Of a stretch of DNA of 64,000 nucleotides, positions 10,996-57,933 are shown one piece after another. Under the pieces are notes generated by a model. The model was not told where the DNA came from, ran no database searches, and worked only from the letters and a program-made list of their open reading frames with translations. The DNA comes from Paraburkholderia youngii (GTDB taxonomy: Bacteria; Pseudomonadota; Gammaproteobacteria; Burkholderiales; Burkholderiaceae). The stretch spans positions 1,508,197 to 1,572,196 of the forward strand of contig NZ_JAALDK010000002.1 in assembly GCF_013366925.1 (NCBI RefSeq), read 5' to 3'. The position numbers and the translations under genes are program-made. How positions within the stretch are numbered: position 1 is the first letter of the stretch; each line of letters starts with the position of its first letter.

Positions 10996-11226
10996 CGTTC
11001 ATCTCCCGGCCGCCGTCCGGCGGCTGATGCGGGTAAGTCCTAATCCGTCGTCATTATGCGGGATGTGAACGGCGAGCGTCGCCCGCGCGGGGCGACTCGG
11101 CGTATAGTCGATTGACGCCGTTAAAGAAGCCCGCGCGTTGGCTCGTTTAACTTCGGTAGTAAGTTGCCGCTCGCCAAGGCTGACCGAGCGGCGTGGTTTT
11201 CAATTACCTCGGTTGCCCGCGTAATC

Positions 11227-12114
11227 ATGCGACGCCTGCATCTGCTCGAAATCGAAGACCAGCCGTGGTGCCCACGCGCCCTCCGTGACGGCGGGACGGA
11301 CTGGCTGCACTTTCTGGCCAATTCCCACAAGGGCTTCAACGTGATCGCGGGCAAGCTGCGCGAGGCGATGCGCCGGGTCGGCAGCGACCGGATCGTCGAT
11401 CTGTGCTCGGGCGGCGGCGGGCCATGGCAGACGCTTGCACCGTTGCTCGCGCTGTCCGGCCGCGTGATGGTGCAGTTGACGGACTTCTATCCCAATCGCG
11501 CCGCGTACGAGCGGATTTCAGCCGGGTCGACCAACTGTGTCACCTATGTGAGCGAACCGGTGGACGCGATGAACGTGCCATCGAGATTCGACGGCGTGCG
11601 CACGATGTTCAACTCGTTCCACCATTTCCGGCCGGACGATGCGCGCGCGATCCTCGCCGACGCCGTGACGAAACGCCGCGCGATCGTCGTCGTCGAGGGT
11701 GCGGATCACCGGCTGCTCGGTATCGTGTTCATCCTGGTGATGCCGCTGATGATGCTCGCGCTGACCCCGCTGATCCGACCGTTTCGCTGGTCGCGGCTAG
11801 CGCTCACCTATGTGCTGCCGGCGATCCCGCTGCTGTGTCTGTTCGACGGCATCGTGTCGATGCTGCGCATCTACAACCCCGACGAATTGCGTGAGATGGT
11901 CGCGAGTATTCCGGATCAGCAGAGCTTCGATTGGGACATCGGCACGCTGCCGGTGCAGGGCTCGCCGCTCGGTCTGACTTATCTTGTCGGCGTTCCGCGG
12001 CAACCCGCAGGCTTGAACGCAAGCGCGCGCCGTCGGGCGCGGCGCGCGGATCACTTGCCGGCCAGATGCTCGGGTGTCTGGGTGTTGCCCGGCGGCAACT
12101 CGCCCATCGCCTGA
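11227..12114 (+). CDS. Class I SAM-dependent methyltransferase-like protein with hydrophobic C-terminal insert
   Basis: 295 residues. The N-terminal half has a Rossmann-like methyltransferase core. VDLCSGGGGPW (near residue 58) is the SAM-binding glycine loop, followed by a QLTDFYPN second strand and FNSFHHF at the motif IV position. The later part holds two strongly hydrophobic stretches (LGIVFILVMPLMMLALTPLI and LALTYVLPAIPLLCLF), unusual for a soluble methyltransferase and suggesting a membrane-associated enzyme. I chose the ATG at 11227 (MRRLHLLEIED), although the frame opens at 11164. The last 64 bp overlap the 3' end of the convergent outer-membrane lipoprotein gene, and the final 30 or so residues are low-complexity and arginine-rich. 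The substrate is unknown. Confidence 0.75.
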   Translation: MRRLHLLEIEDQPWCPRALRDGGTDWLHFLANSHKGFNVIAGKLREAMRRVGSDRIVDLCSGGGGPWQTLAPLLALSGRVMVQLTDFYPNRAAYERISAGSTNCVTYVSEPVDAMNVPSRFDGVRTMFNSFHHFRPDDARAILADAVTKRRAIVVVEGADHRLLGIVFILVMPLMMLALTPLIRPFRWSRLALTYVLPAIPLLCLFDGIVSMLRIYNPDELREMVASIPDQQSFDWDIGTLPVQGSPLGLTYLVGVPRQPAGLNASARRRARRADHLPARCSGVWVLPGGNSPIA

Positions 12115-13616
12115 AACAGCGTCGCCGTATCGGCCAGGCGCCGGCCGACCAGGCGGATTTCTTCCAGCCTCGCTGCTTCGTACTGCTGCTCGCCGCCGCG
12201 AGCGGAGGCAGCGGGCAGCGCGCCGAGCCGGTGACGTGACGTGGCATCGTCGAACGTCTCGCGTGCGTCGCGGGCAGCGCCGCTCGCGGCTTCGAGCGCC
12301 TGCGCGTCGTGTTCGAGCGACGCAAGCGTGTCGGCGACGTTCTCGAACGCGGCCAGCACGGTCTGCTTGTACTCGAACACGGCGGCCTCGTAGGTATCGA
12401 TTGCCGCGCGCCGCTGCGCGACGAGCGCGCCGCCATGAAACAGCGCTTGCGACATCGTCGTGGCGATGCTCCAGATCGCGCCGGCGCCCGACAGCGCGAG
12501 CGGCCAGCTGAACCCGCCTTGTCCCATCGATGCGTTCAGCGTCAGGCTCGGAAAGAGCTGTGCGGTGGCGACGCCGACGTCGTTCGCGGCGGCTTTCAGC
12601 GCCGCCTCGGCGGCCGCGATATCGGGCCGTGAGCGCAACAGGTCCGATGGCAGCACGACCGGCACGTCCTGCGGCAAATGCAGGCTCGCCAGATCGGGCT
12701 CGGGCGGCGCCGCGTCGGGCGTGCGGCCGAGCAGCACCGCAAGCGCGTGTCGGGTCACGGTCAGCCGTTGCCGCAGATCGGCCGCGCTGACCTGGAGCGC
12801 GGCGGTGCTTTGCCGCGCAGCCGACACGTCGCCGCGCGTCAGCGACCCGAGCTGGTAATGCCGTTCGGTATCGTGAGCCTGATCGCCCGCCAGCACGATC
12901 AGGCGCTCGGTCGCATCGATCTCGGCGCGCAGCATCGCCGCCTCGATCGTCGCCGTGACGATGTTGGTGGCCAGCGCGCGGCGCGCGGCTTCGCGTTGAT
13001 ACGCATCGATGTCGACCCGCGCGGAGCGCGCCGCGTTGGCCTTGCGCACCGCGCCGAACAGGTCGAACGTGTATTGCGCCTGGACCACGCCGATGAACTC
13101 GTTGTAAAGCAGCGTATTCGGCGCGCCGGGAACCGGAATGCCGAGATCGCGTCCGCGCGAGGCCTGCGCGACCAGATCGACCGACGGCAGCAGCGTGGCG
13201 CCGATCTGCGCGCGCAGTTGTTCGTGCGCGGCGGCCAGGTGCTTGTCGGCGGCGGCGAGCGTCGGGCTGTTGCGCAGGCCTTCTTCGACGAGGTCGTTCA
13301 ATGTCGTCGAGCCGAACAGCCGCCACCATTGCGGCACCGGCTGCGCGCCGGTGGTGAAGCGCTGTGCTACACCGAGCGCCTCGACGGTTTGCGCGGGCTG
13401 CGGCTCGGCGCCGTAATGGGCGGGCGAGGGCATCGCCGGCGGCTCGCCGCTCGGACCGAACGAGCATGCGCCAAGCGCGATCACAGCGGCCGCGCCGAAC
13501 GCCGCGCGCCAGCGATGGGTCGCCACCGCCCGCGCTCGACGCGGCGCGTCAGTGAAATGCGGCGCGCTCGCCGGCCCGTCGATAGGGTTGCAGTCTGTGC
13601 GCACGATCAGCTCCAC
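12051..13616 (-). CDS. RND efflux outer-membrane lipoprotein, NodT/OprM family
   Basis: 521 residues. The TolC-like outer-membrane channel of a tripartite pump. A lipobox (VIALGAC) near residue 50 predicts acylation after signal-peptidase II cleavage. The body shows the two repeated coiled-coil/beta halves typical of the family (ALGVAQRFTTGAQPVPQWWRLFGS near the N-terminus; the VQAQYTFDLFGAVRKANAARS channel signature). The GTG start at 13616 overlaps the end of the RND permease gene by 10 bp, so translation is probably coupled. It is the last gene of the leftward 11-gene operon. The substrate should be that of the adjoining pump, inferred to be the cluster's product. Confidence 0.92.
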   Translation of the reverse strand: MELIVRTDCNPIDGPASAPHFTDAPRRARAVATHRWRAAFGAAAVIALGACSFGPSGEPPAMPSPAHYGAEPQPAQTVEALGVAQRFTTGAQPVPQWWRLFGSTTLNDLVEEGLRNSPTLAAADKHLAAAHEQLRAQIGATLLPSVDLVAQASRGRDLGIPVPGAPNTLLYNEFIGVVQAQYTFDLFGAVRKANAARSARVDIDAYQREAARRALATNIVTATIEAAMLRAEIDATERLIVLAGDQAHDTERHYQLGSLTRGDVSAARQSTAALQVSAADLRQRLTVTRHALAVLLGRTPDAAPPEPDLASLHLPQDVPVVLPSDLLRSRPDIAAAEAALKAAANDVGVATAQLFPSLTLNASMGQGGFSWPLALSGAGAIWSIATTMSQALFHGGALVAQRRAAIDTYEAAVFEYKQTVLAAFENVADTLASLEHDAQALEAASGAARDARETFDDATSRHRLGALPAASARGGEQQYEAARLEEIRLVGRRLADTATLFQAMGELPPGNTQTPEHLAGK

Positions 13617-16600
13617 GTGTATTCGATTGTCGAGGACGCGGTTCGCACACCGCGTTCGAAGTGCCGCACCTTGAACGCGGTCGCATAGAGCGCGGGAACG
13701 AAGAACAGCGTCAGCACGGTCGCGCCTGTGATGCCGCCCATCAGTGCGGTCGCCATCGGTCCGAAGAAGGCCGATTGCAGCAGCGGGATCAGCGCGAGCA
13801 CGGCGGCCGCGGCGGTCAGCATGATCGGGCGGAAGCGCCGGACCGTGGCGCTTACGATCGCATCGAAGCGCCCCTGGCCCGCGGCGATATTGCGTTCGAT
13901 CTGATCGACGAGAATCACCGAGTTGCGCATGATGATTCCGGACATCGCAATGACGCCGAGCATCGCGACGAAGCCGAACGGCTTGCCGAACAGCAGCAGT
14001 GCGGCGACCACGCCGATCAGCCCCAGCGGCGCGGTGAGCACGACCATCAGCACGCGCGCAAAGCTGCGCAGTTGAATCATCAGCAGCGTCAGCACCACCA
14101 CGAGCATCAGCGGCAGCTGCGCGATCACCGACGCCTGCGCCTTGCCGCTGATCTCGCCCGCGCCGCCGGTCTCGATCCGATAGCCGATCGGCAGCGACGC
14201 GCGCAGCGGCGCAAGCGTCCGATCGATCGCCTGGGTCACGTCGAGGTCCAGCGCGTTGCCGCGCACGTCGGCCTGGACCGTGATCGTCGGTTGACGGTCG
14301 CGGTCCCAGATCACCCCGTATTCGAGTTCGTTGTGCAGGTGCGCGAGCGTGCCGAGCGGAACCGGGCCGTTCGGCGTCGGCATCGCGAGGTTCACGATCT
14401 CGGCGGGATCGACCCGCTCACGCTGGGGCGCGCGCAGGTCGACGCTGATCAACCGGTCGCGCACCCGGTACTGCGTGAACGTATAGCCCGATAGCGTCAT
14501 CGCGAGGAAGCTCGCCACGTCTTCCGACGTGACACCGAGCTCGCGCGCCTTCTGCTGGTCGATCTCGAAGCGCACCGAGCGTTCGCCGGGTTCGTCCCAG
14601 TCGAAATGCACGCCCGTCGTGCGGGCATCGGCCTTCATCGTCGCCGCGACTTTTTCCGCGATTTCCCGCACGGTGGCAAGGTCGTTTCCGCTGACGCGAA
14701 ACTGCACCGGATAGCCGACCGAGGGTCCCGTCTGGAGCGGCGAAACGCGCGCACGTACGGCGGGAAAGCTGTTTTGCAGCGTGCTCGCGAGCCAGCGTTC
14801 GAGCTTTTCGCGGTCGTCGACGGACCTGGCGGTGATCACGAGCTGCGCGAAGTTCGGCTGGGGCATCTGGACGTCGAGCGGCAGATAGAAGCGCGGCGCG
14901 CCCGTGCCGACGAAGTCGACCAGATGATCGATCTCGGGCCGGCCGGCTAGCGTCTTTTCGAGGCGCGCGGCTTCGCGCAGCGTCGCTTCGAACGACGCAC
15001 CTTCGGGCAGCCGCATGTCGACGAGCAGCTCGGGACGCTCGGAGCTCGGGAAGAACTGTTGCGGCACGAGCGCGAAGCCGGCCAACGCGACGACGAACAG
15101 CGCAGCCGTGACGCCAATCACGACGAGGCGGCGCTTCACGCACCACGCGATGCAGTCGCGCAGGCGGTCATGAAAGCGGGGCGCGCGCGGCGCCGCCAGC
15201 GGGGCGCGGCGCGTCTGCGCGTCGTCGCGCCGGCGCAGCTTGCGAAGCGCGCGCCGAGGCGGCGTCTCGCGCGCGATGTCCTTGCGTTCGGGCAGCAGGT
15301 GATAGCCGAGCAACGGAATCAGCACGACCGCCGCGAACCACGAAGCAACCAGCGCAATCGCGGACACCTGAAAGATCGAGCGCGTGTATTCGCCAGTGGC
15401 CGATTTCGCCAGCGCGATCGGCAGGAATCCCGCCACCGTGACCAGGGTTCCCGTCAGCATCGGAAACGCGGTGCTGCTGTAGGCGAACGCCGCGGCCCTC
15501 GCGCGGCCCCATCCCTGTTCGAGCTTCACTGCCATCATCTCGACCGCGATGATCGCATCGTCGACGAGCAGCCCCAGTGCGAGGACCAGCGTGCCGAGCG
15601 AGATCTTGTGCAGGCCGATATCGAACCCATTCATGCATAGCGCGGTGACCGCGAGCACGACCGGGATCGAGATCGCCACAACCACGCCGGCGCGCCAGCC
15701 CAATGAGATGAGGCTCACGGCCAGCACGATCACGATCGCTTCGGCGGCGGCGCGCAGAAAGCCGTTGACCGAGTGCGAGACCGCGTGCGGCATGCTCGAC
15801 ACCTGGACGAGTTCGAGCCCCGCGGGCAGACGCGCGCGCAATTCGGCCGTCTTCGCGTCGAGCAGCTTGCCGAGCTGAATCACATCGCCGCCAGTCTGCA
15901 TCGTGATGCCGATGGCGAGCACCGGCCGGCCGTTGGTGCGAACCTGCGAGACCGGCGGATCGTCGTAGCCGCGCTTGATCGTCGCAATGTCGCCAAGACG
16001 AACGAGGCGGTGATTGATGTCGATCAGCGTGTCGCTCATCGCCGTCAGGTCGGTGAACTGGCCGCTCGGACGCACGAACACGCGATCGAACGCGGTGGTG
16101 AGCGTGCCGCTCGGCGTGACCGCGTTTTGCGCGTTGATCGCCCGCGCGAGCTGTTGCGGCGTGATGCTGAGCCGCGTCAATTGCGCGTTGGGAATCTCGA
16201 TCGTGATGTGCTCGTCGGGGTCGCCGAAATAATCGACTTTCGCGACACCGGGCACACGGAGCAGCACGCCGCGCAGTTCGTCCGCATAGTCGTGCAGTTG
16301 GGCCGGCGAGAAGCCGTCGCCGGCTAGCGTATAGATGTTCGTGTAGACGTCGCCGAATTCGTCGTCGAAGTACGGCCCGCGCACGCCGGGCGGCAGCGTA
16401 TCCGCGATGTCGCCGATTTTCTTGCGCACCTCGTACCACGTGTCGCGCACCTCGCTCACCGGCGCGGAGTCTTTCATCGTGAAGACGATCAGCGATTCCC
16501 CGGGACGCGAGTAACTGCGCAGATAGTCGAGATGCGGCGTCTCCTGCAGCTTGCGGCCGATCCGGTCGGTCACCTGCTCCTCGACCTGGCGCGCGGTCGC

Positions 16601-16852
16601 GCCGGGCCAGAAGGTGCGGATCACCATCGCGCGGAACGTGAACGGCGGGTCCTCCGATTGTCCGAGCCGGGAATAGGCGAGCACGCCGAACAGCGTCGCG
16701 AGCACGACGGCGAAAAAGACGAGCGCCTGGTTGCGGATTGCCCACGCGGACAGATTGAAGCGGCCGGTGTCGTCCGCTGCTGGCCGCCGCGGTCCACCCG
16801 GTTCACCGGGGCCGCCCGCTCCGTCGGGCCCCTGGCCAAACAGCGCTCTCAT
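13607..16852 (-). CDS. RND-family efflux permease (inner membrane pump)
   Basis: 1081 residues, close to the 1030-1050 typical of AcrB-like proteins plus a glycine- and proline-rich N-terminal extension of about 30 residues. The first membrane helix (NQALVFFAVVLATLFGVLAYSRL) leads into the periplasmic porter domain. The proton-relay helix 4 carries adjacent acidic residues in LGLLVDDAIIAVEMM. A second periplasmic loop begins after residue 600, and helices 7-12 close the protein, with the family signature VGVIAMSGIIMRNSVILVDQIE near the end. The long basic segment LPERKDIARETPPRRALRKL between the halves is cytoplasmic. The start overlaps the adaptor gene stop as ATGA. Drug or metabolite export is the expected role. 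Confidence 0.95.
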   Translation of the reverse strand: MRALFGQGPDGAGGPGEPGGPRRPAADDTGRFNLSAWAIRNQALVFFAVVLATLFGVLAYSRLGQSEDPPFTFRAMVIRTFWPGATARQVEEQVTDRIGRKLQETPHLDYLRSYSRPGESLIVFTMKDSAPVSEVRDTWYEVRKKIGDIADTLPPGVRGPYFDDEFGDVYTNIYTLAGDGFSPAQLHDYADELRGVLLRVPGVAKVDYFGDPDEHITIEIPNAQLTRLSITPQQLARAINAQNAVTPSGTLTTAFDRVFVRPSGQFTDLTAMSDTLIDINHRLVRLGDIATIKRGYDDPPVSQVRTNGRPVLAIGITMQTGGDVIQLGKLLDAKTAELRARLPAGLELVQVSSMPHAVSHSVNGFLRAAAEAIVIVLAVSLISLGWRAGVVVAISIPVVLAVTALCMNGFDIGLHKISLGTLVLALGLLVDDAIIAVEMMAVKLEQGWGRARAAAFAYSSTAFPMLTGTLVTVAGFLPIALAKSATGEYTRSIFQVSAIALVASWFAAVVLIPLLGYHLLPERKDIARETPPRRALRKLRRRDDAQTRRAPLAAPRAPRFHDRLRDCIAWCVKRRLVVIGVTAALFVVALAGFALVPQQFFPSSERPELLVDMRLPEGASFEATLREAARLEKTLAGRPEIDHLVDFVGTGAPRFYLPLDVQMPQPNFAQLVITARSVDDREKLERWLASTLQNSFPAVRARVSPLQTGPSVGYPVQFRVSGNDLATVREIAEKVAATMKADARTTGVHFDWDEPGERSVRFEIDQQKARELGVTSEDVASFLAMTLSGYTFTQYRVRDRLISVDLRAPQRERVDPAEIVNLAMPTPNGPVPLGTLAHLHNELEYGVIWDRDRQPTITVQADVRGNALDLDVTQAIDRTLAPLRASLPIGYRIETGGAGEISGKAQASVIAQLPLMLVVVLTLLMIQLRSFARVLMVVLTAPLGLIGVVAALLLFGKPFGFVAMLGVIAMSGIIMRNSVILVDQIERNIAAGQGRFDAIVSATVRRFRPIMLTAAAAVLALIPLLQSAFFGPMATALMGGITGATVLTLFFVPALYATAFKVRHFERGVRTASSTIEYTWS

Positions 16853-17955: not shown

Positions 17956-17957
17956 GC

Positions 17958-19628
17958 TCACGAGTGTTCCTCCAGCTCGCCGGCTTCGAACTGCGCCTTG
18001 GTCCGGCGGCGCTGCACCTTGCCGCTCGAAGTCCGCGGCAAGCTGCCCGCCTGTACGATCGCGACGTGACCGACCTGCAGGCCCGCGCATTCGGCGACCT
18101 TCTGCGCGATCGCACGGCGCAGCGCCGTGGCCTCCGCGGGCTTGCCCTCGGCGCAGACGACCAGCGTCTCGTCGCCGTCGCGCATCACGCTGAACGCGAT
18201 CACGCCGCGGCTTTGCACGCTCGGCAACTCGGCCACCGCCCATTCGATGTCCTGCGGATAGAGGTTCGAGCCGTGAATCACGATCAGGTCCTTGCTGCGG
18301 CCGCAGATATAGAGCTGGTCGCCCGCGACGTAGCCGAGATCGCCGGTCTGCAGCCAGCCGTCGCGGTACGCGTCGGCGCTCGCTTCGGTGAGGCCGTAGT
18401 AGCCCACGGTGATGCTGGGCCCGCGCGTGACGATCTCGCCGACGCAGCGTTCGGGCAACGCACGTCCGGATTCGTCGACGATCCGCAGCTCGTGTCCGGG
18501 AAAGCAATGGCCGCAGCCGACCAGTTCGATCGTGCGCAAGCTGGTATCACGCGCGGCCGGTATCGCTCGACCGAGCCCCAGCGGTGCCGCATAGACGACG
18601 TCGGTGACGATCGGCTGGCCGTGCTCGTGAAACGTGATCGCGAGTGTTGCCTCGGCCATCCCGTAGCACGGCAGCAGCGCTTCGGCGCGAAAGCCGGCCG
18701 GCTCGAAGCGCGCGGAGAACTGGCGCAGCGCTTGCGCGTTGATCGGCTCGGCGCCGCAGCCGGCCACGCGCAGTCGGCTCAGGTCGAGGCCTTCGAGATC
18801 CTGGTCGCGGGTGCGGCGCGCGGCGAGCGCATACGCGAAGTTCGGCGCGAAGCTGATCGTGCCGCGGTACTTCGTGATCGCCTCCATCCACAGGCCAGGC
18901 CGGCGCACGAATGCTTCGGTTGCTAGCAGCACGCTCGGCAAGTCGCAGATCAGCGCGCCCAGCACGCTGATGAGTCCCATGTCGTGGTGCAGCGGCAGCC
19001 AGCTCACATAGACGTCCTGCTCGTGCAGATCGATGCCGCGCGGTCCGAGGAACGCTGTCGCATTCGCGATCAGATTGCGATGCGTGACCATCACGCCTTT
19101 CGGCAGCGACGTGCTGCCCGACGTGTATTGCAGGAAACACAGGTCATCGGGATGCAGCGCGGGCAAATCGCAGGCGGGCGGCTCGCCGTCGAGCAGCGCT
19201 TCGACGGTCACGATGCATTCGAGGCCGGTGTCGGCGGCCAGCACGTCCTCGATAGTCTCGCGTGTCGAGTTCGACGTCAGCAGCATCCGCGCGCCTGCCG
19301 AGCGCACGATGTGACTGACGGTTTCGGCGTAGCGTTCGCGGGTTCTGAAGTTCAGGCTTCCGCGCGGAAAGATCGGGACCGGCACCAGACCGGCGAACGA
19401 CGCGCCGAGGAAGCTCAGGATGAACGCTTCCGGGTCGAGGATCACGAGCGCGATACGGTCGCCCTTGTTCAGGCCGAGTGCCACGAGCTTTTTCGCACGC
19501 TGGCGTGCCTCGCGCTCGAGCGCCTCATACGGATAGTAGTGCTCGTCGCCGTGCGAGGAGACAAAACGAAGGCCTCGAGCGTCGCCGCGCGGCAGCGCTG
19601 AAACGGCATCGACTAGCGTCAGGTTCAT
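17958..19628 (-). CDS. Fatty-acyl-AMP ligase (FAAL-type adenylate-forming enzyme)
   Basis: 556 residues. Activates a fatty or other carboxylic acid as an acyl-adenylate, normally for transfer to an acyl carrier protein. The P-loop-like motif YTSGSTSLPKGV (near 170) and the later motifs CYGMAEATLAITF, DGWLQTGDLGY and CGRSKDLIVIHGSNLYPQDIE are those of FAAL/DltA-type enzymes rather than acyl-CoA synthetases. The SWLPLHHDMGLI block is a FAAL hallmark. A GGGGAG ribosome site precedes the ATG. An acyl carrier protein, a desaturase and a reductase lie in the same operon, so the likely product is an acyl-ACP that is then modified. Chain length cannot be judged. Confidence 0.92.
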   Translation of the reverse strand: MNLTLVDAVSALPRGDARGLRFVSSHGDEHYYPYEALEREARQRAKKLVALGLNKGDRIALVILDPEAFILSFLGASFAGLVPVPIFPRGSLNFRTRERYAETVSHIVRSAGARMLLTSNSTRETIEDVLAADTGLECIVTVEALLDGEPPACDLPALHPDDLCFLQYTSGSTSLPKGVMVTHRNLIANATAFLGPRGIDLHEQDVYVSWLPLHHDMGLISVLGALICDLPSVLLATEAFVRRPGLWMEAITKYRGTISFAPNFAYALAARRTRDQDLEGLDLSRLRVAGCGAEPINAQALRQFSARFEPAGFRAEALLPCYGMAEATLAITFHEHGQPIVTDVVYAAPLGLGRAIPAARDTSLRTIELVGCGHCFPGHELRIVDESGRALPERCVGEIVTRGPSITVGYYGLTEASADAYRDGWLQTGDLGYVAGDQLYICGRSKDLIVIHGSNLYPQDIEWAVAELPSVQSRGVIAFSVMRDGDETLVVCAEGKPAEATALRRAIAQKVAECAGLQVGHVAIVQAGSLPRTSSGKVQRRRTKAQFEAGELEEHS

Positions 19629-19644
19629 GGTGACGGCTCCCCGC

Positions 19645-20649: not shown

Positions 20650-20703
20650 GGCAGTTTCCTTCAGGGGCGGTTGCAGTGGTCAGTCAGGAGGTAGGGATTC
20701 GTT

Positions 20704-23481: not shown

Positions 23482-23496
23482 TGAGGTCCCCGTTGC

Positions 23497-25158: not shown

Positions 25159-25176
25159 GGTTAGGCTCCCTGAGCG

Positions 25177-26259: not shown

Positions 26260-26285
26260 CGTGGGTGACCATCCAGGGTTGCGTG

Positions 26286-27203
26286 TCATTTGAGGAAAAT
26301 CTCGGCCAGCATTCCGAGCTCGACGGCGACGATGAAGCGCGTGCCCGCCCAGCGTGGCCGGCCCGGCCTGCTCGCGGGGCCCGGCCGACTCGCGTTGAGC
26401 CAGACGAGCCATACGAGTGGCAGCGTCGCCGCATAGATCGAATAGGTTTGCGACAGGCCTGCGAGGCGCGACAGCGACACGTTGATGCCGAGCGCCAGCA
26501 TCAGCAGGACATTCAGCGCGACGCGGATTTCGCGCGCCGACAGGTGATAGGGCTGCAGTGCGGTGGTGCCGACTTTGCGCGAGAACTTCCAGAATTCGTA
26601 GCCGGTCCACATCGAGCCCGCTACGCACATCACGGCATAGAAGCTCAGTTCGCGGCCAGCCATGTCGCGCCACCAGAAATAGCCGTACATGAAGACCGCG
26701 AAGGGCGCCCCCTCGAATGCGGGAAAGCACAGCAGCGGGCTGCTCGGGAGCAGCCGCTTGAATACGAACGGCGCGGCGAAGGCGAGGGCGGTGGCGGCAG
26801 CGGCGGCCGTCCTCGCGTGCTCCATGCCGGTGTTCAGCGCAACGAGCAGCAGCGCGCTGGTCGCGAGGCTGGCGACGAGACGTGTGCGTCGTGCCTCGCG
26901 GCGCGCCAACAGCGCGTGCCCGGCGGGATAGTCGCGTTCGAGATCGTCGAGATCGTCGATCAAGCGAAGCTGGACGAACAGCAGGAGAAAGGACACGAGG
27001 CCGGCCAGCACACGCCAGCCCGGTTCAACGGCGACGCCGGCGATCCGTCCGTACAGCAGCAGCGAGCAGACGAACGCGCCGGCGATCGGCAGCGCTTCGG
27101 CGGCCAGCGGCAAGCGGCCGAGCGTGTTGCCGACGGCAGCTGCCGCGGCCGCAAGCCGGCCACGTCTTGCCTGCGCGGTGGCCAGCGAAAGGCGCGGGCT
27201 CAT
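26286..27203 (-). CDS. UbiA-superfamily-like membrane protein
   Basis: 305 residues, about eight hydrophobic segments. The first Asp-rich motif of intramembrane prenyltransferases is present as DDLDDLERD (83-91, fitting DDxxDxxxD), in the expected place between helices 2 and 3. The second motif (DxxxD, expected between helices 6 and 7) is not evident: the corresponding stretch reads GYEFWKFSRKVG. It may be a diverged prenyltransferase, or a member that transfers another group. The start codon overlaps the ACP stop codon as ATGA, so the two are translationally coupled. The aromatic or lipid acceptor is unknown. Confidence 0.7.
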   Translation of the reverse strand: MSPRLSLATAQARRGRLAAAAAAVGNTLGRLPLAAEALPIAGAFVCSLLLYGRIAGVAVEPGWRVLAGLVSFLLLFVQLRLIDDLDDLERDYPAGHALLARREARRTRLVASLATSALLLVALNTGMEHARTAAAAATALAFAAPFVFKRLLPSSPLLCFPAFEGAPFAVFMYGYFWWRDMAGRELSFYAVMCVAGSMWTGYEFWKFSRKVGTTALQPYHLSAREIRVALNVLLMLALGINVSLSRLAGLSQTYSIYAATLPLVWLVWLNASRPGPASRPGRPRWAGTRFIVAVELGMLAEIFLK

Positions 27204-27529
27204 GTACGCATCCCCTCGTTGGCGTCCACGCGGATGGCGGCGTGCCGGATGCACAGGTCCACGAGCGAGCCGACCGTGAAATACGTTTCGGCGTGTTCTT
27301 CGTTCAACGCTTCTAGCGGCAGACGGTCGATGCCGAACGCCTGCTCGACTGCGACCACCGCTTCGACGAGCGATAGCGAGTCGAGGCCGAGATCGGCGAT
27401 CAGCGAACTCTCGAGGTGAATCTCTGCGTTGAAGTCGCGCTGATGCTCGCGGCAGACGCGCAGCAACTGCGTGCGTACGATGCCGAATACGGTGTTGCGC
27501 AGCGACGCATTTTTCGGTGTGCTGGCCAT
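27200..27529 (-). CDS. Acyl carrier protein
   Basis: 109 residues, longer than the 75-80 of primary-metabolism ACP. The 4'-phosphopantetheine attachment motif is LGLDSLSLVE, with Ser51 as the predicted prosthetic-group site, followed by the acidic helix II/III region (VVAVEQAFGIDRLP). It lies in an operon with a fatty-acyl-AMP ligase, a desaturase and a reductase, so it most likely carries a fatty-acyl intermediate of the specialised pathway rather than serving general fatty-acid synthesis. The stop codon overlaps the next gene's start. Confidence 0.9.
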   Translation of the reverse strand: MASTPKNASLRNTVFGIVRTQLLRVCREHQRDFNAEIHLESSLIADLGLDSLSLVEAVVAVEQAFGIDRLPLEALNEEHAETYFTVGSLVDLCIRHAAIRVDANEGMRT

Positions 27530-27546
27530 GCTGGGTTCCTTTCCGT

Positions 27547-28317
27547 TCACGCGTTGCTCGGCGCGGCGTAGCGCCACGGCAGAGTCTGGCCACCGGCCAG
27601 GATGCCCTGGGGATGCGCGAGCGCGACCGGCTCGATCGCCAGTTGCAGGCGGACGAGTGCGAGCGGTCGCTCCAACGCTTGTTCCCAGCGGTATGAGAGG
27701 GGAATGCGCGCGCGCTTGCCACGCAGCCATGCGCGGTGCAGAAAACGATGGACCCAGAAGTTCGGCCACCACGGCGCGGTCAACGCGGTGCCGAGCAGAC
27801 CGACGATGCGCGCGCGCATCGGTTCGAGGCCGCAGTCGAATGCGAGAAGCGAGGTCTCGCCGGCCCAGTCCTGTCCATAGCCCGTCAACACGTGCAGCAG
27901 GTCATGAATGCAGCCGCTGCGCTCGATGAACCACTGACGGTCCGGGCCCGGCAGGATTTCTTCGAGACCGGCGGCCAGCCGGCTTGCTTGCAGCAGACCA
28001 TCGGCGCTGTAGCCGCTGCGCTCCATCATCGCCATGTAGGCGCGGCCGAACGAGCCGGGCGGCAAGCGCAGCAGCGTGTCGGAATCAGCGAGCGTATCGA
28101 GCAATGACGGCTGTTCCGAAAGCAGCGCGCCGGCGCCCGGCTCGCTCAGAAAGCGCTGGTACATCGTCTCCATCTGACCGCCGTCGAGCGCGATCATCAC
28201 TTCGTAGGCATGCTGAATGTCGTCTACGTTCTCCCTCAACGCCTTGATCGCTCGCAACGCGCGCGGCCAATCGATGTGGCGTCGCGCCAGCGCGTCGTCC
28301 TTCAAAGTTGCTGTCAT
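27547..28317 (-). CDS. Coq4-family protein
   Basis: 256 residues. It carries the Coq4 family metal-binding motif HDxxHx(11)E exactly: His138-Asp139, His142 and Glu154 in HDLLHVLTGYG...GE. Coq4 proteins act in ubiquinone synthesis on the aromatic head group; bacterial relatives outside ubiquinone operons are little studied. It is the first gene of the leftward operon, ahead of the ACP by 17 bp. The UbiA-like gene two positions on hints at a head-group-plus-lipid chemistry parallel to quinone synthesis. I chose the ATG at 28317 (GGGAG just upstream) over an in-frame ATG-equivalent at 28353. Confidence 0.82.
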   Translation of the reverse strand: MTATLKDDALARRHIDWPRALRAIKALRENVDDIQHAYEVMIALDGGQMETMYQRFLSEPGAGALLSEQPSLLDTLADSDTLLRLPPGSFGRAYMAMMERSGYSADGLLQASRLAAGLEEILPGPDRQWFIERSGCIHDLLHVLTGYGQDWAGETSLLAFDCGLEPMRARIVGLLGTALTAPWWPNFWVHRFLHRAWLRGKRARIPLSYRWEQALERPLALVRLQLAIEPVALAHPQGILAGGQTLPWRYAAPSNA

Positions 28318-28393
28318 CTGCGGCTCCCGGCAAAGATCAAGAGGGCGGGTCACGAGTGGCGATCGACCGGTGCCACTTCTTGCGGACGCATTT

Positions 28394-28482
28394 TGCAGGG
28401 TTCATGCCAGTCATCCGTTGGCACCACGCAAGTCGTCCTCATCCCCTGCAAGAACGGAACGAAGTGCCCAGATCTCAAAAGG
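28394..28482 (-). repeat. Leader copy A (upstream of the Coq4-like gene)
   Basis: Read on the minus strand, this segment aligns without gaps to 28686-28774 on the plus strand, with about 58 of 89 identical columns by hand. The 15-base block CCTTTTGAGATCTGG differs by one base from its partner. Its first base is 165 nt before the Coq4-like ATG and in frame with it. The translated frame gives PFEIWALRSVLAGDEDDLRGA and then two TGA stops (28411 and 28402), at positions where copy B reads TGC and CGA. Confidence 0.75.
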
Positions 28483-28685
28483 CGGGGCGGGTATCGCGCG
28501 GATTGAAGCGGTGTCGGCGCATTGCCGACGCACGTTGGAGGAAAACCCCTCAGCCTCCTGAATGTCGGTGCCGGTCCAACATCCGAAGGAGATCTGTTGG
28601 TTGCAGCTCGACTGCACGACGTCTGATACCGGCCCGGTTCACATGCCAACGTCCAAACATCTAAACGTTCGGATATATGGCCCGG

Positions 28686-28774
28686 CCTTTTGAAATCTGG
28701 CGGCCTGCTTGCGTCATTGCCTCTGACGGGGACTCACTTCGCGCAGCAAAAGAATGCCTGGCACGAACAGTGCA
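28686..28774 (+). repeat. Leader copy B (upstream of the GHMP-like gene)
   Basis: Partner of the minus-strand segment 28394-28482. The block starts 156 nt before the GHMP-like ATG and is in frame with it. An ATG at 28677 opens the frame as MARPFEIWRPACVIASDGD and nothing stops it before 28842. Amino acids shared with copy A (P, F, E, I, W, V, A, D, D, L, R, A) are mostly encoded by different synonymous codons, which suggests a coding origin. It may be a leader peptide, the true N-terminus of the GHMP-like protein, or a structured RNA leader. Confidence 0.75.
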
Positions 28775-28841
28775 CCAGGAGCGCGAACAACGGGTGGTGC
28801 CCTTTGGAATTCCTGGAACTCACGAGGACGGAGGTAGAGCA

Positions 28842-29951
28842 ATGAATCAGGCCTGGAAGGCGAAAGCGGGGCAGTTCCTGCCGGGGGCGAATCTGACTGT
28901 GCTGCCGCACTGGGAGCGCGACGCGGTGCCGAGCTACGATCGTGCCGAAGTCTCGGTGCCAGGGCGCCTTCACTTCGCCGTGTTCGACTTCATGCAAATG
29001 ATGCCCGGCTTCGGCGGCGGCGGACTCGGCGTATCGACGAGCACGGTCGGACACCGGATCACCGTCACGAAGACGAACAACGGCGAAGGCGGCTGCGACG
29101 TGCCGAGCGGGCGGCACATGCTCGAGTTGTTCAAGCGAACGGTCGGCTACTCACGCGACGACATCCGTGTCGATCGGCTGCGCAGCATCCAGCATCAGCA
29201 CAGCGGCTTCGGCTCGAATGTGTCGTTCAACACCGCGACGCTCGCCGGCTTGAACGCGTTGTTCGGCTCACCGTTTTCGCCGCACGACATGTGGGAAATG
29301 ATCACCCGCAACTACGTCGAGACCGCGAAGGATGACGAGCACGTGTATTTCGGCCTCGAGACCGGCGTCGGTGAAGCTTGCCTGTTCTTCGGCGGGCTGG
29401 TCTGGGTCGACGAGAAACACGGCAACGGCCGTTTCCTCGGCAACCTGAGTTCGGAAAACCTGTGGGTGACCACCGCCGTTGGCAACTACGACACGCTATC
29501 GACCGAAGCGCTGCGTGCGCATGGCGAAGGCGCGGACATGTCCGGCACCACCGAGGCCGGTTTCGTGCCGACGCATTTCGTCGAGTGGCAGAAGCGCTAT
29601 GGCACCGCGTGGCGCAACTTCATCGAACAGAAACTGCGGCCGGCGCTGCATCGCAACGACCTGTTCGCGTTTCTGAAGCACGGCTGGGAACTCAACAGCA
29701 TGAGCAACATGAAGGTGCTCGAAGGCATCTTCCGGACCGACGTGATGCGTGAGTTCGACGAGACGATGCAACGCGAGGGCGCGGTGTACGCGGGGATGAG
29801 CAGCGCGGGTCCGGGCTTCTATGCGTTTTCCGACTGCGAGGAAAAGGCGAAGCACCTCTCGGCGGTGATGCGGCATCGGTTCAGTGAATTCATGAGCGAG
29901 ATGACGGTGGCCCGCGCGGGCCAGAAGATGTCGATCGACGTCGCCGTCTAG
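28842..29951 (+). CDS. GHMP-kinase-superfamily protein resembling beta-RFAP synthase
   Basis: 369 residues from an ATG with a good ribosome site (GGAGG, 8 bases upstream). An N-terminal VPGRLHFAVFDF strand and the GGGGLGVSTS turn are followed by the GHMP phosphate-binding motif HQHSGFGSNVSFNTATLAGL (118-137). The ETGVGEACLFFGG segment resembles the GIGTG-F-GG region of beta-ribofuranosylaminobenzene 5'-phosphate synthases, which join a phosphoribose to an aromatic acid with loss of CO2. It could equally be a small-molecule kinase. It is the first gene of the rightward operon. An in-frame ATG at 28677 would give a 424-residue form; the ribosome site favours 28842. Confidence 0.72.
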   Translation: MNQAWKAKAGQFLPGANLTVLPHWERDAVPSYDRAEVSVPGRLHFAVFDFMQMMPGFGGGGLGVSTSTVGHRITVTKTNNGEGGCDVPSGRHMLELFKRTVGYSRDDIRVDRLRSIQHQHSGFGSNVSFNTATLAGLNALFGSPFSPHDMWEMITRNYVETAKDDEHVYFGLETGVGEACLFFGGLVWVDEKHGNGRFLGNLSSENLWVTTAVGNYDTLSTEALRAHGEGADMSGTTEAGFVPTHFVEWQKRYGTAWRNFIEQKLRPALHRNDLFAFLKHGWELNSMSNMKVLEGIFRTDVMREFDETMQREGAVYAGMSSAGPGFYAFSDCEEKAKHLSAVMRHRFSEFMSEMTVARAGQKMSIDVAV

Positions 29952-29964
29952 CCGCGCCCTTTTT

Positions 29965-30004
29965 CGACCCCTTGCGACCCCTTGCGACCCCTTGCGAACC
30001 CTCG
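29965..30004 (+). repeat. Four tandem 10-bp repeats between the GHMP-like and radical SAM genes
   Basis: CGACCCCTTG occurs three times exactly (29965, 29975, 29985), then once degenerate (CGAACCCTCG, 29995). It starts 13 bp after the GHMP-like stop codon and ends 28 bp before the next start. One repeat is about one DNA helical turn. It may be replication slippage, a binding array, or a length-variable spacer affecting expression of the downstream gene. Confidence 0.85.
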
Positions 30005-30032
30005 CGAAACTTTCCACTGAGACTGATCGAAC

Positions 30033-31565: not shown

Positions 31566-31633
31566 CGCGGGATGTGATGTCCGAAGCGGCCAGCCATCCG
31601 CTGGCCCGTGTACTTTCAACGCAGGAGGAGTGC

Positions 31634-33061
31634 ATGCTTTTAGAAAACAGCCAGCCTGAGCCGTACAGGATCAAGATGGTCGAGCCGATCAGGCTGATCG
31701 ACCGCGAGCAACGGCAGGCGCGGCTTGCCGCTGCCGGGTACAACGTGTTTCGCCTCGAAGCCGACGACGTCTATATCGATCTGATGACGGACAGCGGCAC
31801 CTCCGCGATGAGCGCGAACCAGTGGGCGGGCATCATGACCGGCGACGAGTCGTATGCCGGCTCCCGCAGCTTTACCAAGCTGACGCAGGCGGTGCGGGAC
31901 ATGCTCGGCTTCGAATACGTATTGCCGACTCACCAGGGACGGCCGGCCGAGCACTTCCTGTTCCGGACCCTCGTGCGCCCGGGCCAGGTGGTGCCGTTCA
32001 ACGCGCCGTTCGATTCGACCGAGGCGCACGTATCGATTGCCGGCGGGACCGCGATATCGTGTGTCGCCGAAATCGGCTACCAACCCTCTGTCGAGCATCC
32101 GTTCAAGGGCGACGTGGATGTGCAGAAACTGCGCAACGTGATCGAGAGCGAAGGGCGCGACAACGTTCCGCTAATAATGGTCTCGCTGACGAACAACGCG
32201 GGCGGCGGACAGCCGGTATCGATGGCGAACCTGCGCGCGGTGAAAGCGTTGGCCGATGAGTTTGCGATTCCCGTGTACTTCGACGCGGCGCGCTGCGCGG
32301 AGAATGCTTATTTCATCCAGCAGCGCGAGAGCGGCTATGCGAACCGGTCGGTGGCGGAAATTCTGAAGGAGCAGTTTTCCTACGCCGACGGCTGCACGTT
32401 CAGTTGCAAAAAGGATGCGCTGGTCAACATCGGCGGCTTGCTCGCGACACGGTCGCGCGTGCTCTACGAGCAGGTTGTGCCGCTGCTCGTGCTGCACGAA
32501 GGCTTCGTCACCTACGGAGGGATGGCAGGCCGCGATCTCGAAGCGCTCGCGATCGGTCTGCGCGAGATGGTCGACGACAGATACCTGCAACACCGCGTGG
32601 GTCAGGTCGAACGGCTAGGGGACACACTGCTTGCCGGTGGCGTTCCGATCCTCAGGCCGACCGGTGGACACGCGGTGTATGTCGATGCGGCCGCCTTCCT
32701 GCCGCACGTGCCGCGCTCGGAGTTCCCCGCCGAGGCGCTGGCTTCCGAGCTTTACCTGGAGGGCGGCGTGCGCGCCGTCGGTCTGGGCTCGTTGGCGTTC
32801 CTGAAAGAAGATCCATCGACGGGCGCGCTCAGCGCCCCGAGGCTGGAACTGCTGAGGCTCGCCATTCCTCGCCGCGTCTACACCGATAGCCACCTCGCGG
32901 CGGTTGCGGCGGCGTTGATCCGGGTCTACCAGCGACGCGATTCGATCCGCGGTATGCGCATCGTCTCGGCGCCGCCGATGCTCAAGCACTTCACCGCGGT
33001 GCTCGCGCCGATCGAGGCCCGTGACGAGGTGTTTGCGGAGAGCCGCGAAGTGATGGTCTGA
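31634..33061 (+). CDS. PLP-dependent beta-eliminating lyase, tryptophanase/tyrosine phenol-lyase family
   Basis: 475 residues, start fixed by AGGAGGAG before the ATG. Conserved family residues: Tyr74 (DESYAGS), THQGR (99-103), Asp217 and Arg220 (YFDAARC), and the PLP lysine Lys260 in SCKKD. Overall the sequence reads closer to tyrosine phenol-lyase (SYADGCT, VNIGG, GGMAGRD). However, positions I recall as setting substrate choice look like tryptophanase: Asp127 where TPL has Thr124, Leu384 where TPL has Arg381, and His452 where TPL has Phe448. It should release an aromatic (indole or a variant) plus pyruvate and ammonia, or run in reverse to build an amino acid. It lies inside the rightward biosynthetic operon. 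Confidence 0.9.
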   Translation: MLLENSQPEPYRIKMVEPIRLIDREQRQARLAAAGYNVFRLEADDVYIDLMTDSGTSAMSANQWAGIMTGDESYAGSRSFTKLTQAVRDMLGFEYVLPTHQGRPAEHFLFRTLVRPGQVVPFNAPFDSTEAHVSIAGGTAISCVAEIGYQPSVEHPFKGDVDVQKLRNVIESEGRDNVPLIMVSLTNNAGGGQPVSMANLRAVKALADEFAIPVYFDAARCAENAYFIQQRESGYANRSVAEILKEQFSYADGCTFSCKKDALVNIGGLLATRSRVLYEQVVPLLVLHEGFVTYGGMAGRDLEALAIGLREMVDDRYLQHRVGQVERLGDTLLAGGVPILRPTGGHAVYVDAAAFLPHVPRSEFPAEALASELYLEGGVRAVGLGSLAFLKEDPSTGALSAPRLELLRLAIPRRVYTDSHLAAVAAALIRVYQRRDSIRGMRIVSAPPMLKHFTAVLAPIEARDEVFAESREVMV

Positions 33062-33070
33062 GGTGATTTC

Positions 33071-33823
33071 ATGTCGAATGCCGTGTTCGAAGCGCTCGAG
33101 CTCAAACCGCATGCTTATCCCGGCGTACTGGTCACGTTGTGCGGCGTGGATGGGGCCGGAAAGTCCTCACTGATGAAAAAGCTCGAAAGCGCGTGTACGC
33201 ATGCAGGGCTCAATTGCGTGACGACGTTTACGCCGACCAGTCGCATCCGCAAAGATGCGTTGTTCCGGGAGATGGTCGACAGCCACTGGCATACCTTCAA
33301 AGCGAGCTCCGAGCCCGACGCAAGCGTACGTCGCGTCGACATGCTGGGCATTCTGCTGTCCATCATGGGCGACCTCGTCCAGCATCTGACCGACACGGTC
33401 ATACCGGCACTGGGACGCGGCGACGTAGTCTTTTGCGACCGCTACGTGTTCACCTCTCAGGCCGAGATCGGCACGCGTTCCGATCCGGCTGCGACTGCGC
33501 CGGTGCTCCGCAGCATCGCTGGCCATGTGCTGCGTCCCGACGTCGCCTTTGGTCTGAACGTTTCCGGCGCGACTTCACACCGCCGCGTGCGCTCAAGGAA
33601 CGACGTGAACGACCAGCCGCCGCCGATGAGTTTTCTGACGCGTCAGGTGGCGGCCTATCGCGCCGTGTTCGACGTCAATGGCGTCGTCGCGCTGGATGGG
33701 GAGCGGAGTATCGACGAGACGTACCGCGCGGCAATCAGTCGTATCGCGGCTATCGAACGGGTTGCGGGGCGGTTGGGCCCTATCGCGGCGGAACACGCTG
33801 CAGGAACCCTGGCGGCATGCTGA
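33071..33823 (+). CDS. Thymidylate-kinase-like P-loop kinase
   Basis: 250 residues. Walker A is GVDGAGKSS (25-33), and the DRY-type motif is in VVFCDRYVFTSQAE; both are features of dTMP kinases. The protein is longer than housekeeping Tmk (about 210), begins with an extra 15 residues, and has an altered LID region (SHRRVRSRNDVNDQPPPMSF). It is therefore probably a specialised kinase of a small nucleoside- or sugar-like intermediate rather than the essential enzyme. Starts 9 bp after the lyase stop codon and is the last gene of the rightward operon. Confidence 0.78.
   Translation: MSNAVFEALELKPHAYPGVLVTLCGVDGAGKSSLMKKLESACTHAGLNCVTTFTPTSRIRKDALFREMVDSHWHTFKASSEPDASVRRVDMLGILLSIMGDLVQHLTDTVIPALGRGDVVFCDRYVFTSQAEIGTRSDPAATAPVLRSIAGHVLRPDVAFGLNVSGATSHRRVRSRNDVNDQPPPMSFLTRQVAAYRAVFDVNGVVALDGERSIDETYRAAISRIAAIERVAGRLGPIAAEHAAGTLAAC

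Positions 33824-56106: not shown

Positions 56107-57933
<1,827 letters not shown>

What the first reader, a model, noticed from the sequence alone, without database searches (positions are those of the whole stretch)
12051..33823. Divergent 15-gene cluster that looks like an undescribed lipid-linked natural-product pathway
Two back-to-back operons combine FAAL, ACP, desaturase, thioester-reductase-like SDR, UbiA-like and Coq4-like proteins, a nucleotidyltransferase and an RPH-like dikinase on one side. On the other are a beta-RFAP-synthase-like GHMP protein, a cobalamin-type radical SAM enzyme, a tryptophanase homologue and a Tmk-like kinase. A full RND pump closes the left operon. Tight spacing (2-54 bp gaps, three overlaps) shows the left operon is one unit. 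I know of no described pathway with this set. One reading: the lyase supplies an aromatic unit, the radical SAM and GHMP proteins methylate and glycosylate it, kinases phosphorylate it, the FAAL/ACP branch adds a modified acyl chain, and the pump exports it.
Basis: partly seen in the sequence, partly recalled or inferred. Interest (0 to 1): 0.85.

Follow-up and report, generated by a model that had tools for sequence, protein, structure and literature searches.

The report
Undescribed bacterial indole-ribose-lipid gene cluster
A 22.6-kb block of sixteen genes, carried by a few Paraburkholderia species and found in different places in their genomes, looks like a pathway that turns tryptophan into a methylated indole, probably attaches ribose and a fatty chain, and pumps the product out.

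Summary
The two operons are one unit: the left marker (NTase) and the right marker (GHMP) occur in the same 7 of 144 genus genomes, side by side in all 7. Where flanks differ, similarity stops near 11195 and 33788.

The right operon is clearest. The radical-SAM enzyme has the signature residues of TsrM, which methylates tryptophan C2. The lyase is tryptophanase-type. Amycolatopsis has a similar pair. The GHMP protein is a remote relative of PRPP-dependent C-ribosyltransferases. I propose Trp -> 2-methyl-Trp -> 2-methylindole -> C-ribotide. The left operon makes an activated acyl/alkyl arm. In three of three organisms examined, relatives of its dikinase share a gene run with UbiA-like, or NTase and Tmk-like, proteins.

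My literature searches found no described pathway with this set. The product is unknown, ribosylation and lipid chemistry are inferred, and no structure model was usable.

The parts
11227..12114 (+).
   Evidence: Methyltransf_25 below cut-off (21.4 vs 27 bits); DLCSGGG motif; codon-position bias 95/37/33; inside the conserved block in the six relatives whose left end was read
12051..13616 (-). RND outer-membrane channel (NodT/OEP family)
   Evidence: PF02321 and TIGR01845 over cut-off
13607..16852 (-). RND permease (AcrB family)
   Evidence: PF00873 511 bits
16849..17955 (-). RND periplasmic adaptor
   Evidence: TIGR01730 212 vs 94.9
17958..19628 (-). Fatty acyl-AMP ligase (FAAL)
   Evidence: best solved relative is a fatty acyl-adenylate ligase, 3pbk, 331 bits; NF006624 518 vs cut-off 600
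19645..20649 (-). Membrane fatty-acid desaturase-like protein
   Evidence: PF00487 69.8 vs 29.7; histidine clusters at 61, 98-104 and 236
20704..23481 (-). RPH/PEP-synthase-like dikinase with C-terminal phosphohistidine swivel domain
   Evidence: NF004881 1412 vs 883; Lys22/Arg117/Thr136/His825 of RPH-Lm have counterparts
23497..25158 (-). Pol-beta-type nucleotidyltransferase-like protein with a ~450-aa extension of unknown fold
   Evidence: NTP_transf_2 18.8 vs 21 and DUF6001 20.3 vs 25; GS..DxD motif
25177..26259 (-). SDR of the thioester-reductase / fatty-acyl-reductase kind
   Evidence: PF07993 147 vs 20.1 bits; TIGR01746 123 vs 213, below cut-off
26286..27203 (-). UbiA-like membrane protein
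   Evidence: no Pfam match; DDLDDLERD motif; hhalign to Roseinatronobacter UbiA E 1.4e-5 vs 0.12 and 0.39 for two controls
27200..27577 (-). Acyl carrier protein (start uncertain)
   Evidence: PF00550 30 vs 20.8; LGLDSL site
27547..28317 (-). Coq4-like protein, first gene of the left operon
   Evidence: PF05019 55.9 vs 22.9; HDxxHx11E at 138
28318..28841 (.). 524-bp divergent promoter region
   Evidence: alignment of 8 species with several invariant blocks
28394..28409 (-). possible sigma-54-like site facing the left operon (tentative)
   Evidence: GG-N10-GC kept in 8 of 8 species; pattern
28759..28774 (+). possible sigma-54-like site, or palindromic operator, facing the right operon (tentative)
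   Evidence: GG-N10-GC kept in 7 of 8 species; lies in a terminator-like palindrome
28842..29951 (+). GHMP-superfamily protein, remote relative of beta-RFAP synthase / ForT: proposed PRPP-dependent C-ribosyltransferase
   Evidence: NF040726 E 5.6e-7 and TIGR00144 E 1.4e-5, both far below cut-off; profile finds a TIGR00144 RFAP synthase as the only other hit in 398 genomes; 32% over 136 aa
30033..31565 (+). Cobalamin radical-SAM enzyme of TsrM type: proposed tryptophan C2-methyltransferase
   Evidence: best solved relative TsrM 6wte; Arg68 and DSEFN Glu shared with TsrM, Arg absent in 6 of 6 other enzymes
31676..33061 (+). Tryptophanase-type PLP lyase
   Evidence: NF009709 633 vs 285; tryptophanase-type residues, no tyrosine-phenol-lyase Arg381
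33071..33823 (+). Thymidylate-kinase-like P-loop kinase
   Evidence: PF02223 52.3 vs 27; P-loop and DRY motif

Best explanation
The 16 genes at 11227-33823 form one horizontally movable biosynthetic unit for an exported, lipid-bearing metabolite with an indole core. (1) The TsrM-type enzyme methylates tryptophan at C2 without a radical. (2) The tryptophanase-type lyase removes the side chain, giving 2-methylindole, pyruvate and ammonia. (3) The RFAP-synthase/ForT-like GHMP protein joins the electron-rich ring, most likely at the freed C3, to the ribose of PRPP, giving a C-ribotide. (4) The Tmk-like kinase, and perhaps the NTase, build up the 5'-phosphate or pass it on. (5) FAAL loads a fatty acid on the ACP, the desaturase modifies it, and the SDR reduces the acyl-ACP to aldehyde or alcohol. 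(6) The His-swivel dikinase activates a hydroxyl or carbonyl with ATP, and the UbiA-like membrane enzyme uses the activated chain to join lipid and head group; the Coq4-like protein and the methyltransferase tailor the ring. (7) The RND pump exports the product. Steps 1 and 2 are supported by signature residues and by one independent gene pair; step 3 by remote homology; steps 4 to 6 are inferred from family chemistry and recurring gene neighbourhoods; nothing has been shown biochemically.
For: One unit: the same 7 of 144 genomes carry both operon markers, adjacent; both operons in 7 of 7 named loci; block edges coincide in different contexts; all 16 genes open in the two relatives tested. Steps 1-2: TsrM is the best solved relative; its Arg69 and Glu273 have counterparts, and Arg is absent in 6 of 6 other B12 radical-SAM enzymes; tryptophanase-type residues; Amycolatopsis AA4 has tsrT and a tryptophanase with one gene between them (35% and 48% identity to the window proteins); two Streptomyces plasmids pair a tryptophan prenyltransferase with a tryptophanase, a described route to ring-modified indoles (PMC3617294 passages). 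Step 3: with PRPP-loop features of ForT. Steps 4-6: all three organisms with dikinase relatives at E <= 1e-50 have another family of this set in the same gene run.
Against: No curated cut-off is reached for the TsrM (255 vs 500), RFAP synthase (29 vs 328; 24.5 vs 113.5) or RPH (334 vs 999) models. RFAP synthase and ForT act on aromatic carboxylates with loss of CO2; ribosylation of an indole without a carboxylate has no precedent I know. The GHMP protein has a ~14-aa insert where ForT binds the 5'-phosphate, and I did not identify a counterpart of ForT's essential Glu211 (PMC9832568 passages). TsrM/tryptophanase in Amycolatopsis lacks any annotated C-ribosyltransferase within 12 kb, and the two Streptomyces tryptophanases examined are not with a tsrM. 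The UbiA-like protein found no plasmid match even at E 1, and the Tmk-like protein did not match the S. durmitorensis one by BLASTP at 0.01; only profile alignment linked them. No reaction links lipid and indole branches directly. The AlphaFold model was unusable (pLDDT 30.5).
Confidence: 0.42

Rival explanations
1. 2-Methylindole is made as above, but the lipid branch delivers a fatty aldehyde that the dikinase condenses with the indole ring, as the PigC/RedH ligases join a pyrrole to an aldehyde in prodigiosin. The GHMP and Tmk-like proteins then act only as kinases.
For: Among NCBIfam models named for something other than PEP synthase, RedH scores highest for the dikinase (382 bits; RPH 334, PigC 332). 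A thioester-reductase-like SDR and an ACP that could give an aldehyde are present.
Against: RedH and PigC cut-offs (1350, 1300) are far from met. Does not explain the RFAP-synthase relationship of the GHMP protein or the UbiA-like and NTase partners of the dikinase.
Confidence: 0.18
2. The right operon's ribosylation substrate is not 2-methylindole but another aromatic acid (RFAP-synthase style, with decarboxylation), and the Coq4-like and UbiA-like proteins work on that ring as in quinone biosynthesis; the lyase/TsrM product is a second building block.
For: RFAP synthase and ForT use aromatic carboxylates (PMC8183095). Coq4-like and UbiA-like proteins occur together.
Against: No gene for an aromatic carboxylic acid is apparent in the unit. 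Four right-operon genes in one order in 7 of 7 loci suggest one chain of reactions.
Confidence: 0.2
3. Two independent operons that merely travel together on one genomic island.
For: They are divergently transcribed and no shared intermediate is proven.
Against: No genus genome searched had one marker without the other (the same 7 of 144). In Streptomyces durmitorensis a dikinase, an NTase and a Tmk-like kinase lie in one run of genes, with two other genes between dikinase and NTase; in the window these families are split between the two operons.
Confidence: 0.08
4. A membrane-lipid modification pathway rather than a secreted metabolite: the unit decorates an envelope lipid, and the pump inserts or expels it.
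For: The dikinase/UbiA pair in Roseinatronobacter sits with a DUF3419 protein, a family I recall as BtaA-like (betaine lipid). A PAP2 lipid phosphatase adjoins the unit in two relatives.
Against: Sporadic distribution (7 of 144) and a dedicated RND pump fit a specialised metabolite better.
Confidence: 0.12

Closest known systems
C-nucleoside antibiotic pathways (formycin ForT, pyrazofurin PyfQ) and beta-RFAP synthase of methanopterin biosynthesis
   Same: GHMP-superfamily protein with the RLH start, the GFGS phosphate loop preceded by His, and the SS-x-GP C-terminal motif, all shared with the RFAP synthase of L042; PRPP proposed as donor
   Different: Far below the family cut-offs; a ~14-aa insert; set beside tryptophan-methylating and -cleaving enzymes and a FAAL branch, not formycin or methanopterin genes
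TsrM of thiostrepton biosynthesis
   Same: B12 radical-SAM enzyme with the non-coordinating Arg and DSEF Glu signature
   Different: 33-35% identity to the Amycolatopsis tsrT; no thiopeptide gene recognised in the unit; paired with a tryptophanase
Type A indole prenyltransferase/tryptophanase clusters of actinomycetes (6-dimethylallylindole-3-carbaldehyde)
   Same: Logic: modify the ring of tryptophan, then release the modified indole with a tryptophanase (PMC3617294 passages)
   Different: Methylation instead of prenylation, and a lipid and transport side not described there in the passages read
FAAL/ACP/desaturase starter cassettes (jamaicamide; Burkholderia polyynes recalled)
   Same: Free-standing FAAL, ACP and membrane desaturase (jamaicamide FAAL, ACP and desaturase in a PMC11837247 passage)
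   Different: A single desaturase, no PKS or NRPS, and an SDR, dikinase and UbiA-like protein instead
Rifampin phosphotransferase and prodigiosin ligases PigC/RedH
   Same: ATP-grasp N-terminus and C-terminal phosphohistidine swivel, catalytic residues of RPH kept
   Different: Below the RPH, RedH and PigC cut-offs; relatives' neighbours are UbiA-like proteins and lipid enzymes

Membership tests
TsrM (tryptophan 2-C-methyltransferase, TIGR04428) | Curated model cut-off (500 bits) | tested here: not met
   255 bits
TsrM (tryptophan 2-C-methyltransferase, TIGR04428) | Arg69 below cobalt and Glu273 on the iron-sulfur cluster, CX3CX2C | tested here: met
   Arg68, DSEFN from 247, Cys motif from 203; Arg absent in 6 of 6 other enzymes
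TsrM (tryptophan 2-C-methyltransferase, TIGR04428) | Methylates tryptophan at C2 | not testable with these tools
   needs enzyme assay
Tryptophanase subfamily (NF009709) | Curated subfamily cut-off (285 bits) | tested here: met
   633 bits; but the TnaA equivalogs (750, 825.8) and tyrosine phenol-lyase (720.7) cut-offs are not met
Tryptophanase subfamily (NF009709) | Tryptophanase-type Asp/His and no tyrosine-phenol-lyase Arg381 | tested here: met
   FDST at 112, HFTA at 438, Leu where TPL has Arg; residue roles recalled
beta-RFAP synthase / ForT | Curated cut-off (328 for NF040726, 113.5 for TIGR00144) | tested here: not met
   29.0 and 24.5 bits
beta-RFAP synthase / ForT | PRPP-binding residues (Arg19, His99-Ser104 loop, Arg135 region of ForT) | tested here: inconclusive
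   Arg42 and QHSGFGS loop present; Arg156 aligns only beside a ~14-aa insert. Aligned to an RFAP synthase from L042, not to ForT itself; essential Glu211 of ForT not located
beta-RFAP synthase / ForT | Same fold | tested here: inconclusive
   AlphaFold model pLDDT 30.5, not usable
PEP synthase as named by NCBIfam (NF004881) | Curated cut-off (883 bits) | tested here: met
   1412 bits; but the PEP-utilizers domain is C-terminal (848-917), the layout that PMC4844700 gives as separating RPH from PEP synthase
Rifampin phosphotransferase (RPH) | Lys22, Arg117, Thr136, His825 | tested here: met
   GNKG at 55, AVRSS at 144, FDTFL at 163, THAA at 880
Rifampin phosphotransferase (RPH) | Curated cut-off (999 bits) | tested here: not met
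   334 bits
UbiA superfamily | Pfam PF01040 match | tested here: not met
   no match up to E 10
UbiA superfamily | First Asp-rich motif and profile similarity to a true UbiA | tested here: met
   DDLDDLERD at 83; hhalign E 1.4e-5 over 61 columns to a PF01040 protein, controls 0.12 and 0.39; motif recalled
Coq4 | Pfam PF05019 and HDxxHx11E motif | tested here: met
   55.9 vs 22.9 bits; motif at 138; motif recalled
FAAL | Closest to solved FAALs rather than CoA ligases; curated cut-off | tested here: inconclusive
   best hit a fatty acyl-adenylate ligase, but NF006624 518 vs 600
Sigma-54 promoters | TGGCAC-N5-TTGC with GG-N10-GC (recalled) | tested here: inconclusive
   two divergent sites conserved in 8 and 7 of 8 species, but the consensus is not enriched in the window: 14 found vs 17.7 expected at up to 2 mismatches

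The most novel reading that the evidence does not exclude
The unit makes the first natural lipid-linked indole C-nucleoside: 2-methylindole made by a TsrM/tryptophanase pair is C-ribosylated with PRPP by a new branch of the RFAP-synthase family acting without a carboxylate leaving group. A fatty chain, activated by FAAL, reduction and a His-swivel dikinase, is then transferred by a UbiA-like enzyme as a fatty-acid-derived stand-in for a prenyl donor. The dikinase/UbiA pairing would be a general, undescribed lipid-transfer module that also occurs in Streptomyces and alphaproteobacteria.
Probability: 0.25. Interest if true: 0.88.

Novelty: new variant of a known kind. Interest (0 to 1): 0.7.

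Why it matters
No PKS, NRPS, RiPP or terpene-synthase core enzyme was recognised among the 16 genes, so rule-based miners may overlook the unit (antiSMASH was not run). It offers concrete, cheap tests of three open points: whether TsrM-type methylases work outside thiopeptides as suppliers of 2-methylindole; whether the RFAP-synthase/ForT family can C-ribosylate a ring without decarboxylation, a reaction useful for C-nucleoside synthesis; and what PEP-synthase-like dikinases do beside UbiA-like proteins.

Tried and rejected
Structure: AlphaFold of the GHMP protein from 8 near-identical rows gave pLDDT 30.5, so I ran no fold search. The NTase job was never accepted. Solved-structure searches with the GHMP protein and its profile hit designed repeat proteins over about 27-34 residues, plus (phmmer only) two other chains at E above 0.8, which I regard as chance. 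The desaturase found nothing relevant.

Distribution: a TIGR04428 search in 398 Pseudomonadota rang nowhere, not even in the window's own genome at E 1e-40, so it is uninformative. Plasmid searches with the GHMP, NTase and UbiA-like proteins found nothing. The Coq4-like protein matched 3 plasmid records; the one opened (Sphingobium) lies among acyl-CoA dehydrogenase and P450 genes, with no other family of this set besides an efflux channel and an acyl-CoA synthetase. No Rfam match. NifA-type sites TGT-N10-ACA were not enriched: 5 found, 6.1 expected. A sigma-70 scan of the divergent region found none.

Considered and rejected: tyrosine phenol-lyase (lacks the Arg381 counterpart); a housekeeping PEP synthase, although the NCBIfam name is that (the catalytic His is C-terminal, as in RPH); the HPPD/AsnC/permease genes to the right as part of the pathway (absent from the ~6 kb read to the right of the unit in P. 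translucens, H160 and P. panacisoli).

Pattern caution: the pattern was written after both sites had been seen; searches are the less biased tests.

Full report
WHAT IS THERE. The window lies in a 9.49-Mb genome whose relatives are Paraburkholderia. It encodes a methyltransferase-like protein (below the Pfam cut-off), and its differences from two relatives fall mainly on the third codon position (95 vs 37 and 33 columns).

ONE UNIT. Of 144 genus genomes searched, 7 (the window's own included) carry the GHMP gene, and the same 7 carry the NTase gene of the other operon, always a few kilobases away and divergent. In an earlier sample of 98 relatives the GHMP gene was in 3, all of the genus, and in 0 of the 40 genomes from other genera of the order. 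A scan of the species-genome collection with short peptide patterns, which reaches close relatives only, confirmed 7 loci among 11 stretches that matched a pattern, all labelled Paraburkholderia except Burkholderia sp. H160. All 7 have both operons in the same order as far as the 21-kb loci reach; the RND genes lie outside them. In P. monticola and P. translucens all 16 genes are present. For the best hits, amino-acid identities are 77-96%, with substitutions concentrated at third codon positions.

MOBILE UNIT. In P. atlantica and P. tuberum both flanks match the window (P. tuberum lacks one left-hand gene), and in P. monticola and strain UYCP14C the right flank does. In P. panacisoli and H160 the right flank does not match, and in P. 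panacisoli and P. monticola the left flank does not (weak matches of about 25-27% identity aside). In these cases similarity stops at 11195-11209 on the left and 33764-33788 on the right. This defines the unit without assumptions about function, and fits transfer as a block. In a sample of 398 Pseudomonadota the NTase (E <= 1e-6) and the dikinase family NF004881 (E <= 1e-180) were each found in one genome, the window's own.

RIGHT OPERON. The radical-SAM protein's best solved relative is TsrM (6wte, 223 bits; the next is 71). TsrM differs from other B12 radical-SAM enzymes by Arg69 under the cobalt and by using Glu273 to hold the cluster (PMC8992657, passages read; the Glu position itself is common in the superfamily). 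By alignment these are Arg68 and the Glu of DSEFN. I compared the window protein with Amycolatopsis tsrT and six other enzymes taken from the 20 listed hits (of 100 records). GVT-x-RNTD and DSEFN are shared with tsrT, and the Arg is absent in 6 of 6 others, BchE and HpnR among them. The lyase scores as tryptophanase subfamily (633 vs 285) and carries the tryptophanase-type Asp and His, with Leu where tyrosine phenol-lyase has Arg381 (residue roles recalled). I opened three actinomycete plasmid tryptophanase neighbourhoods. On the Amycolatopsis plasmid a tsrT gene and a tryptophanase have one gene between them (35% and 48% identity to the window proteins). The two Streptomyces plasmids have no tsrT there but pair a tryptophan dimethylallyltransferase with the tryptophanase, an arrangement tied to ring-modified indoles (PMC3617294, passages read). 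TsrM methylates tryptophan and indolepyruvate but not indole (PMC8992657), hence my order: methylation, then cleavage, giving 2-methylindole.

THE GHMP PROTEIN. NCBIfam's best model is beta-RFAP synthase NF040726 (29 bits, E 5.6e-7), then homoserine kinase (25 bits) and TIGR00144 (24.5 bits); none reaches its cut-off. A profile of 8 orthologues run over 398 Pseudomonadota found one other protein (E 9e-6), which passes the TIGR00144 RFAP-synthase cut-off (156 vs 113.5) though not that of NF040726 (174 vs 328), and lies beside a weakly formylmethanofuran-dehydrogenase-like gene. It aligns at 32% identity over 136 residues. The window protein keeps the RLHF start and the QHSGFGS loop. ForT binds PRPP with Arg19 and the loop His99-Ser104 (PMC8183095, first of three parts of the text read). 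A ~14-residue insert sits near the 5'-phosphate site. The only ForT variant confidently measured as inactive was E211A (PMC9832568, passages read), and I could not place its counterpart. So the protein works like, but is not shown to be, a C-ribosyltransferase; the structure model failed.

LEFT OPERON. FAAL, ACP, desaturase and thioester-reductase-like SDR form a recognisable acyl-loading and reduction set. The dikinase has the RPH layout with the catalytic residues (PMC4844700, passages read), though NCBIfam names its family PEP synthase. Its relatives at E <= 1e-50 on plasmids are 18 records from three organisms (104 records at E <= 1e-30), and I examined one record of each of the three. Roseinatronobacter has a true UbiA directly before it and an AMP-binding enzyme further on, after three other genes. 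S. clavuligerus has a UbiA-like protein directly after it (PF01040 19.6 bits, below the cut-off). S. durmitorensis has an NTase and a Tmk-like kinase in the same run, with a P450 and an NTF2-like gene between. Profile alignments to the window proteins: UbiA E 1.4e-5 and 1.1e-3, NTase 6e-4, Tmk 9e-5, against 0.12-0.5 for four control comparisons. These are single comparisons, BLASTP did not link the two Tmk-like proteins, and no control set of unrelated dikinase neighbourhoods was examined. They suggest that dikinase, UbiA-like protein, NTase and Tmk belong together across the two operons.

REGULATION (tentative). The 524-bp divergent region has two GG-N10-GC sites facing the two operons, kept in 8 of 8 and 7 of 8 species. 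The recalled sigma-54 consensus is not enriched in the window (14 found, 17.7 expected), and the right-hand site is also a palindrome, so an operator is equally possible.

LITERATURE. Searches of the held PMC library found no paper describing the set. Searches returned none. In the rows shown by the other searches no title or start of abstract matched: 15 of 274 papers; 15 of 46; 15 of 21; 6 of 6; 12 of 4,966; 10 of 25; 12 of 126; 10 of 20. In a FAAL review (PMC11837247, passages only) the terms radical SAM, nucleoside and indole do not occur. Most subscription papers and all bioRxiv preprints are outside the library.

VERDICT. Most likely an exported, lipid-bearing 2-methylindole C-riboside pathway, confidence 0.42; the whole-unit claim is much firmer than the chemistry.

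Noticed in passing
window 49593-50285; L009:17785-18474; L033:3802-4491: A PAP2-type lipid phosphatase gene well away from the unit in the window has homologues (73-75%) within about 250-270 bp of the left end of the unit in P. translucens and G161; it may be an optional member.
   Followed up: partly
L029 (Amycolatopsis sp. AA4 plasmid): tsrT and a tryptophanase lie one gene apart, with no thiopeptide gene annotated within 12 kb: a candidate stand-alone 2-methylindole module.
   Followed up: partly
L047 and L048 (Streptomyces plasmids): Clusters with an AfsA-type hotdog protein, an ICMT-like methyltransferase and the dikinase, plus NTase and Tmk in one and a UbiA-like protein in the other. 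Whether they are described was not searched for.
   Followed up: partly
L046 (Roseinatronobacter plasmid): UbiA, dikinase, DUF3419, two unknowns and an AMP-binding enzyme in one run of genes.
   Followed up: partly
window 7325-10618: Large regulator with SAM (sterile alpha motif), adenylate cyclase, AAA and TPR domains beside the unit.
   Followed up: no
window 51623-57933: Aromatic ring-cleavage genes: DmpG-like aldolase, acetaldehyde dehydrogenase, FAA hydrolase, FAD hydroxylase, hydrolase, BphC-like dioxygenase.
   Followed up: no
window 12014-12114: The methyltransferase gene in the window runs on into the end of the RND channel gene, whereas in two relatives it stops earlier.
   Followed up: no
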